A stretch of DNA of 64,000 nucleotides from a virus, in IMG/VR virus record IMGVR_UViG_3300027902_000006, positions 62,001 to 126,000 of that record; one strand, given 5' to 3'. The position numbers and the translations under genes were made by a program. The notes under the pieces were generated by a model. That model ran no database searches. It was given only the letters and a program-made list of their open reading frames with translations, and was not told the DNA's origin. This document shows, in pieces, positions 21,060 to 23,318 of this stretch (position 1 is its first letter; the number at the start of each line of letters is the position of its first letter).

Positions 21060-23318
21060 TCAACTACAATTACTCCAGCCACACCAAGGGCAAGTAGAAC
21101 ATCCTCCGCCCATATCCAATAATTCCCCACAGTCGGGGCACATGGGGCTGGCGATGGGAATCGAACCCGCAACCTGAGCCTTACAAGGACTCTGCTCTTC
21201 CGTTGAGCTACGCCAGCCTAACTTCCTTTTACGAATGACCTTAGCAATTCCGTCCGGAGGAGAAAGTATAGCTTGGCCATCATGCCAACCCGTCTTCTCA
21301 CCGATAATTCCTCGGAGTTGCTTCTCTACTTCTTCCCATGTAGCTCCCTTGTTAAGAGCCAGAGTGGCGAGTCTTCCTATCGCTGCGTTCATGGAAGATA
21401 GAGTACGTCCTTCTTTGCTGATTTGCGACCAAAGTTCTTTATACCCGGTCTCTGGGTCTTCAAAGAGATGGACATAAAGCGTACCTTCTCCTGTTCTGAC
21501 TCTATCCCTAGAACCTTCTAAGTAGTCGGGAGGTTCACCTGGGCCAAAGATCTTTTCTAAGAGTTCAACCTCGTCTCTCGTTTGCTTCACTTCTACGGCT
21601 TCTTTTTTATTATTTATGATTGTAACCCGAACCGCCTCTGCTACTACTTCGGGAGAGACAGTTCCCTTGACAGCCGGAGATTTAACTTCTCTTATATCAG
21701 TTTGGGCCTCTTCTTCTCTACTTCCTTGGCGATAGAAGGTTAGTCCTTTACAACCAAGGACATATGCAAGTTTAAATGCAGCATCAACCTCCTTGACAGT
21801 GGCGTCATGGGGAGCATTGATGGTTTTGCTTACCGCATTATCAACATGCTTCTGAAACGCTGCTTGCATCTTCACATGAGATACAATAGGAACATCTTTA
21901 GATTCTATCCAATAGGGGGGAATGGGATACTCTACACAAGCGTCAGTAAAACTCATGACAAATTCTTCGTACAACGGATGCATTACAATCAAAGTATCGT
22001 CAATAGCCTTCTTCTTAAATTCAAAAGCGAAGACTGGTTCAATTCCACTACTACATCCTGCTATGAGTGATAATGTTCCAGTAGGAGCTATCGTAGTACA
22101 GGTTCCATTACGTCGTCCTAATACTATCTCACCTTTTTCAATACCTAACTGTTTAGAGTAGTCATGAGCAGTAGTATTGATAATCCTCATGACGCGTTCG
22201 GCAAGTTCTAGACTCCCACTACTGCCATAGGTTATTTTCAACTTAATTAACATGTCAGCCCATCCCATTACTCCAAGACCGACCTTACGAAACTTCTTTG
22301 TCTCACGTTCGATCTCGGAGATAGGATAGTTATTGACATCTATAATATTGTCCAAGAATCGGATAGCTACTCTGACGACTTCTTTTAGTCTCTCTGTATC
22401 AATAGATCCATCTACGACAAAGTTACTGAGATTGATACTTCCTAGTGTACAACTTTCTGAGTTTGCTAAAATTTGTTCCCCACACGGGTTACATCCTCGT
22501 AGAGTCTGATAATCACGTAACGGATTTAGCCTATTTATTGTATCAATAAATAAAAGACCCGGTTCTCCATTTTCCCATGCACCATTAACGAGATATTCCC
22601 ACAATTGTAAAGCAGGTATCGTTGATGAATCTACTCCATTGAATCGTAGTGTCCAAGGCGTATCTTTTCCACTTAGACAATTCATAAAGATATCACTCAT
22701 ACAGACTGAGATATTGAAATGTCTAAGTTTCCCCTCTTTTTCTTTACAAGTAATAAATTTAATGATGTCTGGATGATCTATGTCTAGGAGGCCCATCTGT
22801 GCCCCTTTACGAACGCCTCCTTGTTCGATGACTTCTCCTACTACAAAGTCGAAAACGTTCATGAACCCCAATGGACCACATGAACGCCCCTTTGTAGTAG
22901 AAATTAACGATCCTTCTGGTCTAAGCCATGAAAAGTTATATCCTGTGCCACCACCATAGGCTTGAACCTCCACTGCATTCTTCAATACGTTGAAAATAGA
23001 TTCTCTACTATCTTCTATATCAAAATAAAAACAGGCACTAAGATTCCCATTATTAGCTCCTGCGTTTCGTAAGCATGGGGAGTTTGGTAAGAAGTCTAAA
23101 CTTGACATTATCTCATAGAATTTCATAGACCATTCGGCAAAGAGTATTCCGTCTTTCTCAGCACTCGCTACATGCTTCGCTACTCGCCAAAACATCTCAT
23201 TTGGAGTTTCTATAACGTTATCATTCTCGTCTTTAACGAGAATCCTGTTTTCCAGAACTCTAATCGCGTTTTCAGATAGTCTCATAGTAGGGGAAGTGCC
23301 CGTGTATTCAGACCCCAC
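21060..23318 (-). CDS. nrdJ: Adenosylcobalamin-dependent (class II) ribonucleotide reductase
   Basis: Class II hallmarks are visible: NSPCLRNAG, GGGTGYNFSWLRP, the RGCNPCGEQ active-site loop, TIAPTGTLSLIAGCSSGIEP, GCKGLTFYRQGSR and the C-terminal region GRTLSSMNAAIGRLATLALN. A terminal zinc ribbon (MCPDCGELLD...CPWCGWSNC) closes it. It makes deoxynucleotides using coenzyme B12 without oxygen. The tRNA-Thr gene lies in frame between the catalytic part and the zinc ribbon, adding 25 odd residues (about 701-725). The start may be the GTG at 23318 or the ATG 11 codons later. Confidence 0.9.
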   Translation of the reverse strand: MGSEYTGTSPTMRLSENAIRVLENRILVKDENDNVIETPNEMFWRVAKHVASAEKDGILFAEWSMKFYEIMSSLDFLPNSPCLRNAGANNGNLSACFYFDIEDSRESIFNVLKNAVEVQAYGGGTGYNFSWLRPEGSLISTTKGRSCGPLGFMNVFDFVVGEVIEQGGVRKGAQMGLLDIDHPDIIKFITCKEKEGKLRHFNISVCMSDIFMNCLSGKDTPWTLRFNGVDSSTIPALQLWEYLVNGAWENGEPGLLFIDTINRLNPLRDYQTLRGCNPCGEQILANSESCTLGSINLSNFVVDGSIDTERLKEVVRVAIRFLDNIIDVNNYPISEIERETKKFRKVGLGVMGWADMLIKLKITYGSSGSLELAERVMRIINTTAHDYSKQLGIEKGEIVLGRRNGTCTTIAPTGTLSLIAGCSSGIEPVFAFEFKKKAIDDTLIVMHPLYEEFVMSFTDACVEYPIPPYWIESKDVPIVSHVKMQAAFQKHVDNAVSKTINAPHDATVKEVDAAFKLAYVLGCKGLTFYRQGSREEEAQTDIREVKSPAVKGTVSPEVVAEAVRVTIINNKKEAVEVKQTRDEVELLEKIFGPGEPPDYLEGSRDRVRTGEGTLYVHLFEDPETGYKELWSQISKEGRTLSSMNAAIGRLATLALNKGATWEEVEKQLRGIIGEKTGWHDGQAILSPPDGIAKVIRKRKLGWRSSTEEQSPCKAQVAGSIPIASPMCPDCGELLDMGGGCSTCPWCGWSNCS
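21143..21217 (-). tRNA. tRNA-Thr (anticodon UGU), CCA encoded, nested in nrdJ
   Basis: 75 bases: acceptor GCTGGCG/CGCCAGC, D-arm GCTC/GAGC, anticodon stem GAGTC/GGCTC with loop CTTGTAA, T-loop TTCGATT with a weak outer T-stem pair, discriminator C and encoded CCA. It lies within the open frame of the reductase gene on the same strand and is a multiple of three long, so the frame is kept. Confidence 0.9.

What the first reader, a model, noticed from the sequence alone, without database searches (positions are those of the whole stretch)
21143..21217. tRNA-Thr nested in frame inside the class II ribonucleotide reductase gene
A complete tRNA with encoded CCA lies on the coding strand within the open reductase frame, between the catalytic region and the zinc ribbon that normally closes NrdJ. 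It is 75 bases long and has no in-frame stop, so it would add 25 residues (around 701-725). If the tRNA is cut out, the message loses its zinc ribbon and stop codon. An ATG right after the CCA could start the ribbon as a separate peptide.
Basis: partly seen in the sequence, partly recalled or inferred. Interest (0 to 1): 0.8.

Follow-up and report, generated by a model that had tools for sequence, protein, structure and literature searches.

The report
tRNA genes nested inside phage reductase
In three related phages a complete transfer-RNA gene lies inside, and in frame with, the gene for a DNA-building enzyme, so one stretch of RNA could apparently serve either as a tRNA or as enzyme message, but not both at once.

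Summary
Window 21143-21217 (-) holds a canonical tRNA-Thr(UGU) with encoded CCA (Rfam 59 bits, E 7e-11). It lies fully inside the open frame of a class II ribonucleotide reductase, NrdJ (21060-23318, -), between the TSCPD domain and the six-cysteine zinc ribbon. NrdJs about 40% identical lack the 25 residues.

The two closest relatives found (56% and 53% identical) also carry a complete, in-frame, CCA-ending tRNA inside nrdJ. L001 has tRNA-Thr(UGU) in the same linker. L002 has tRNA-Asp(GUC) in the other interdomain linker. AlphaFold leaves exactly these two linkers disordered. Among 184 predicted tRNAs in 258 fetched loci, no other tRNA is buried in a long gene.

Best reading: a transcript with two exclusive uses. 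Translated, it gives full-length reductase with the tRNA as linker code. Cut by tRNA-processing enzymes, it gives a tRNA and a message without stop codon or redox cysteines. Exact excision with re-joining would keep frame only in the window (75 nt), not in L001 (76) or L002 (79). The ATG after CCA is not conserved. Expression and processing are untested; the two Thr copies need not share one insertion; regulation versus mere tolerance is open.

The parts
21060..23318 (-). nrdJ, class II (adenosylcobalamin-dependent) ribonucleotide reductase, 752 aa, GTG start, TGA stop
   Evidence: ORF; Pfam; NCBIfam; PHROG 84
21143..21217 (-). complete tRNA-Thr(UGU) with encoded CCA, nested in frame in nrdJ, codons 701-726
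   Evidence: ARAGORN; Rfam RF00005 59.1 bits; frame
21066..21140 (-). C-terminal zinc ribbon of NrdJ (residues 727-751), six invariant cysteines, directly after the tRNA
   Evidence: invariant columns C727 C730 C740 C743 C746 C751 in alignment A1; role from PMC5704485
21228..21506 (-). TSCPD domain (residues 605-697), ends three codons before the tRNA
   Evidence: Pfam PF12637
21525..21689 (-). disordered linker (residues 544-598) between barrel and TSCPD; the corresponding linker of L002 holds a tRNA-Asp
   Evidence: AlphaFold pLDDT below 50; L002 tRNA

Best explanation
One transcript with two exclusive uses. The sense strand of nrdJ contains a complete tRNA-Thr gene lodged in a disordered linker. 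Ribosomes on an uncut message melt the tRNA and read it as about 25 filler residues, giving full-length NrdJ with its redox zinc ribbon. If host RNase P and 3' tRNA-processing enzymes act first, that copy of the transcript yields a tRNA-Thr, an upstream fragment without stop codon and a short tail, and cannot make a working reductase. Shown: both elements are intact and share an open frame in three related phages. Inferred: transcription, processing, charging and the competition between the two uses. Origin (inferred): tRNAs were inserted into tolerant linkers at least twice, Thr in one linker and Asp in the other.
For: tRNA: ARAGORN and Rfam, encoded CCA. Reductase: homology continues in frame on both sides of the tRNA, and the six cysteines after it are invariant. 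Recurrence: L001 tRNA-Thr(UGU) in the same linker, 66 bits; L002 tRNA-Asp(GUC) in the other linker, 68 bits; both in one open nrdJ frame. Specificity: no other of 184 tRNA predictions in 258 loci lies deep inside a long open frame. Frame: a shared and open frame has a chance of about 0.11 per case if not needed (1/3 times 0.34). tRNA shape kept while the peptide is not: three of five anticodon-stem pairs differ on both sides between window and L001, and a D-loop indel puts the 5' halves in different frames. Location: the two tRNA sites are the two internal low-confidence linkers of the AlphaFold model. L001 shares further tRNA-Gly, -Pro and -Gln isoacceptors with the window, but no second tRNA-Thr was found on either contig.
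Against: No expression or processing data. The window tRNA has a T-stem mismatch, and its minimum-energy fold in the message context is not a full cloverleaf. L001's tRNA is 88% identical to tRNA-Thr of enterobacterial phages but about 75% to the window's, so the paired changes need not have arisen inside nrdJ. The clade has only three known members and the contigs may be incomplete.
Confidence: 0.62

Rival explanations
1. Tolerated passenger: a tRNA sequence was copied by recombination into a disordered linker and now serves only as coding filler; it is rarely or never processed and gives no useful tRNA from this place.
For: Both sites are disordered linkers of variable length. L001's tRNA resembles ordinary phage tRNAs, as a recent copy would. 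The window tRNA shows one T-stem mismatch. No tRNA promoter is evident.
Against: All three tRNAs are complete with CCA and high scores while the NrdJs are only 53-56% identical, so three unselected copies would all have to be young. No second tRNA-Thr was found on the window or L001 contigs to do the job.
Confidence: 0.25
2. Gene splitting: tRNA release, or separate initiation after the tRNA, yields two polypeptides that work together, as in the split NrdJa/NrdJb enzymes.
For: [quoted passage not shown] An ATG with a G-rich run upstream follows in L002.
Against: The frame is kept across the tRNA in all three phages, which splitting does not need. In window and L001 the downstream piece is only the ribbon, with no conserved start or Shine-Dalgarno. 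The separate cysteine-rich domain failed to restore a bacterial NrdJ (PMC5704485).
Confidence: 0.07
3. The tRNA is removed from the message and the flanks are re-joined, so that it behaves like an intron.
For: The window tRNA is 75 nt, a multiple of three, and relatives lack the residues.
Against: L001 (76 nt) and L002 (79 nt) would shift frame after exact removal, and the frame is open through all three tRNAs, which an intron would not need.
Confidence: 0.03
4. The tRNA in nrdJ is an attachment site left by, or used by, an integrating element.
For: tRNA genes are classic integration targets (general knowledge), and SSV-type integrases carry their recombination site inside their own gene (PMC8371274).
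Against: No tyrosine integrase (PF00589) on any of the three contigs. A whole tRNA is present, not a 3' fragment, and no element interrupts nrdJ.
Confidence: 0.03

Closest known systems
tRNAs co-transcribed with messages in bacterial and phage operons (e.g. E. coli thrU-tufB, phage tRNA clusters; from general knowledge)
   Same: A tRNA and a protein message share a transcript and the tRNA has to be cut out.
   Different: There the tRNA lies between genes, so release spares the coding region. Here it lies within the coding region and in frame.
SSV-type suicide integrases of archaeal viruses (PMC8371274)
   Same: A recombination site lies inside the protein frame (it corresponds to part of a tRNA gene, from general knowledge).
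   Different: Only part of a tRNA, kept for integration, in the integrase gene. Here complete tRNAs in a reductase gene, and no integrase found.
Rickettsia palindromic elements (from general knowledge; one open-licence paper holds the terms)
   Same: RNA-folding inserts that keep the reading frame of protein genes.
   Different: Those are mobile repeats without an established tRNA function. These are canonical single-copy tRNAs with CCA.
mRNAs with tRNA-like RNase P substrates, e.g. IFNA5 mRNA (PMC4565877)
   Same: An RNase P substrate within a message.
   Different: Only tRNA-like and studied in vitro. Here a canonical tRNA with anticodon and CCA.
NrdJ with C-terminal cysteine-rich domain, and split NrdJa/NrdJb (PMC5704485, PMC9669993)
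   Same: Same enzyme, same domain order, same six-cysteine tail; the split enzymes divide near the place of L002's tRNA.
   Different: No tRNA is described in those genes in the passages read.

Membership tests
canonical tRNA gene (Rfam RF00005) | matches the tRNA covariance model above the gathering score, with all arms and a readable anticodon | tested here: met
   59.1 bits against a gathering score of 29; L001 66.4 and L002 68.1; anticodons UGU, UGU, GUC
canonical tRNA gene (Rfam RF00005) | is transcribed, processed and charged | not testable with these tools
   no RNA data
class II ribonucleotide reductase NrdJ | barrel domain, TSCPD domain and six-cysteine C-terminal ribbon in one frame | tested here: met
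class II ribonucleotide reductase NrdJ | full-length protein is made through the tRNA-encoded segment | not testable with these tools
   no protein data; open frame in three phages
in-frame mobile repeat (Rickettsia palindromic element type) | many copies dispersed in the genome | tested here: not met
   the 161-base stretch around the tRNA matches once in the own contig
SSV-type suicide integrase attachment site | an integrase gene carries the site | tested here: not met
   the gene is nrdJ; no PF00589 on the three contigs
split NrdJa/NrdJb | catalytic and cysteine-rich parts encoded in separate frames | tested here: not met
   one open frame in window, L001 and L002
intron or spliced insert | removal keeps the reading frame | tested here: not met
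   75, 76 and 79 nt; frame kept only in the window

The most novel reading that the evidence does not exclude
A bifunctional gene used as a switch: tRNA release and reductase synthesis compete for the same transcript, so that ribosome traffic, tRNA-processing capacity or infection stage sets the ratio of phage tRNA to reductase. The products without stop codon could be handled by the phage's own GGQ release-factor-like protein and Pth2-like hydrolase, encoded downstream in the window.
Probability: 0.15. Interest if true: 0.92.

Novelty: new variant of a known kind. Interest (0 to 1): 0.72.

Why it matters
Annotation usually assumes that tRNAs and protein genes do not overlap in full. Here whole tRNAs are buried in frame in an important phage enzyme, in three phages and at two positions. 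That gives a testable case of one RNA serving as either tRNA or message, a natural model of competition between translation and RNase P, and a reason to look for other tRNAs hidden in phage genes.

Tried and rejected
Separate ribbon peptide from the ATG after CCA: not conserved, no Shine-Dalgarno. Intron-like excision: frame fails in L001 and L002. Attachment site: no tyrosine integrase on the three contigs. Chance tRNA look-alike: rejected by covariance scores in three phages. Dedicated tRNA promoter: promoter-like matches in the region are fewer than in shuffles. Pattern scans for a T-arm followed by the ribbon motif gave no further nested case when ARAGORN was run on the hits; those patterns did not recover L001 itself, so they are not exhaustive. 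Folding energies do not discriminate. Theta ribozymes linked to phage tRNAs (PMC10879173) were considered for the stretch before tRNA-Gln; no Rfam match there.

Full report
WHAT IS THERE. ARAGORN places tRNA-Thr(UGU) at 21143-21217 on the minus strand, and the Rfam tRNA model scores it at 59.1 bits, E 6.8e-11. The last three bases are CCA. The enclosing ORF, 21060-23318 (-), is a class II ribonucleotide reductase of 752 aa. The tRNA fills codons 701-726, between the TSCPD domain (605-697) and the ribbon that begins at C727. The record is a 140,478-base viral contig.

ARE THE RESIDUES EXTRA? In an alignment of 16 phage NrdJs the tRNA-encoded segment falls into a gap-rich linker and is absent from sequences about 40% identical. 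All six ribbon cysteines after it are invariant. In a bacterial NrdJ these cysteines bind zinc and carry electrons to the active site; the enzyme without the domain is active with DTT but not with TCEP, and the domain added separately did not help (PMC5704485). Losing the ribbon should therefore cost turnover. Many other phage NrdJs lack the TSCPD domain but keep a short cysteine tail.

IT RECURS. Searches of IMG/VR found only two NrdJs above 50% identity: L001 (IMGVR_UViG_3300010413_000017) and L002 (IMGVR_UViG_3300045007_000398). L001 has a tRNA-Thr(UGU) in the same linker. L002 has a tRNA-Asp(GUC) in the other linker, between barrel and TSCPD. Both end in CCA, score 66 and 68 bits, and lie in frame in one long ORF. 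A scan of 258 loci from the window, viral and bacterial collections (2.08 Mb, partly redundant, 184 tRNA predictions) found no other tRNA with at least 60 codons before and 15 after it in the same open frame. The arrangement marks this clade, 3 of 3 known members. Two different tRNAs at two places imply at least two events.

WHY BOTH READINGS MATTER. Only 34% of tRNA frames are open (135 of 399), so a shared and open frame has a chance of about 0.11 per case if translation through the tRNA is not needed. That argues for read-through. Conversely, window and L001 tRNAs differ on both sides at three of the five anticodon-stem pairs, with one further pair changed on one side and one broken. A D-loop indel puts their 5' halves into different frames with unrelated peptides. 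What is kept is tRNA shape and openness, not the peptide. One caution: L001's tRNA is 88% identical to tRNAs of enterobacterial phages but only about 75% to the window's. The two Thr copies may have different origins, and the paired changes need not have arisen inside nrdJ. With two sequences the covariation statistic is weak (63 of 500 shuffles reach it).

STRUCTURE. AlphaFold (16 sequences, mean pLDDT 80.8) gives pLDDT below 50 only for residues 1-10, 544-598 and 703-723. The last two stretches are where the L002 tRNA and the window/L001 tRNAs sit. The tRNAs occupy the two disordered hinges of the enzyme.

MECHANISM. The most economical account is a transcript with two exclusive uses. Translation gives a full-length reductase with a tRNA-encoded linker. 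RNase P and 3' processing give a tRNA and ruin the message: it loses the stop codon and the redox cysteines, and in L002 the TSCPD domain as well. Re-joining after exact removal would shift the frame in L001 and L002 (76 and 79 nt), so splicing is unlikely. A separately started ribbon is unlikely because the start is not conserved and lacks a Shine-Dalgarno. An attachment site is unlikely because no tyrosine integrase was found on the three contigs. Whether the competition is regulatory, or a cost borne for a compact genome, cannot be told from sequence. The genome is tightly packed: another tRNA (anticodon CUA) supplies the stop codon of the gene before it.

WHAT IS NOT SHOWN. Expression, processing, charging and the protein itself. 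The window tRNA has one T-stem mismatch, and its predicted fold in the message context is not a full cloverleaf. The clade has three known members, and the contigs may be incomplete.

COMPARISON. tRNAs co-transcribed between genes are ordinary. SSV-type integrases carry their recombination site inside their own frame (PMC8371274). Split NrdJa/NrdJb enzymes divide near the place of L002's tRNA (PMC9669993). I found no report of a complete tRNA in frame inside a phage protein gene in the searches made, which cover open-licence papers only and were judged by title and start of abstract. I rate it a new variant of a known kind (overlapping genes; tRNA-bearing transcripts). It would be categorically new if the exclusive use proves to be a regulatory switch.

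Noticed in passing
window 15439-15514 (-) and 15505-15828 (-): A tRNA with anticodon CUA (amber-reading; ARAGORN calls it Pyl) overlaps the end of a small ORF that I take for a Pth2-like hydrolase (PHROG 'hydrolase'; no Pfam match); bases 8-10 of the tRNA, TAG, are that gene's stop codon. TAG ends 16 of 70 long ORFs in 96 kb, so wholesale recoding is unlikely.
   Followed up: partly
window 16210-16578 (-): A 122-aa protein with RF-1 domain and GGQ motif lies directly after tRNA-Gly; a phage release factor or ribosome rescue factor, possibly useful for messages that lose their stop codon.
   Followed up: no
L001 9504-9749 and 9667-9738: In the related phage a tRNA-Gly(UCC) forms roughly the last 25 codons of a small zinc-ribbon-like ORF, which ends three codons after it: perhaps a second tRNA read as protein. 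Its N-terminal part has only weak matches elsewhere.
   Followed up: partly
window 14640-14800 (-): A G-rich, possibly structured non-coding stretch just before tRNA-Gln; no Rfam family matches it.
   Followed up: partly
window 18853-19548 (-): A Mom-like DNA modification protein (PF25680, PHROG 1384) next to a HAD-like ORF.
   Followed up: no
window 20204-20842 (-): An outer-membrane beta-barrel-like protein with an apparent signal peptide (PF13505), encoded by the phage just downstream of nrdJ.
   Followed up: no
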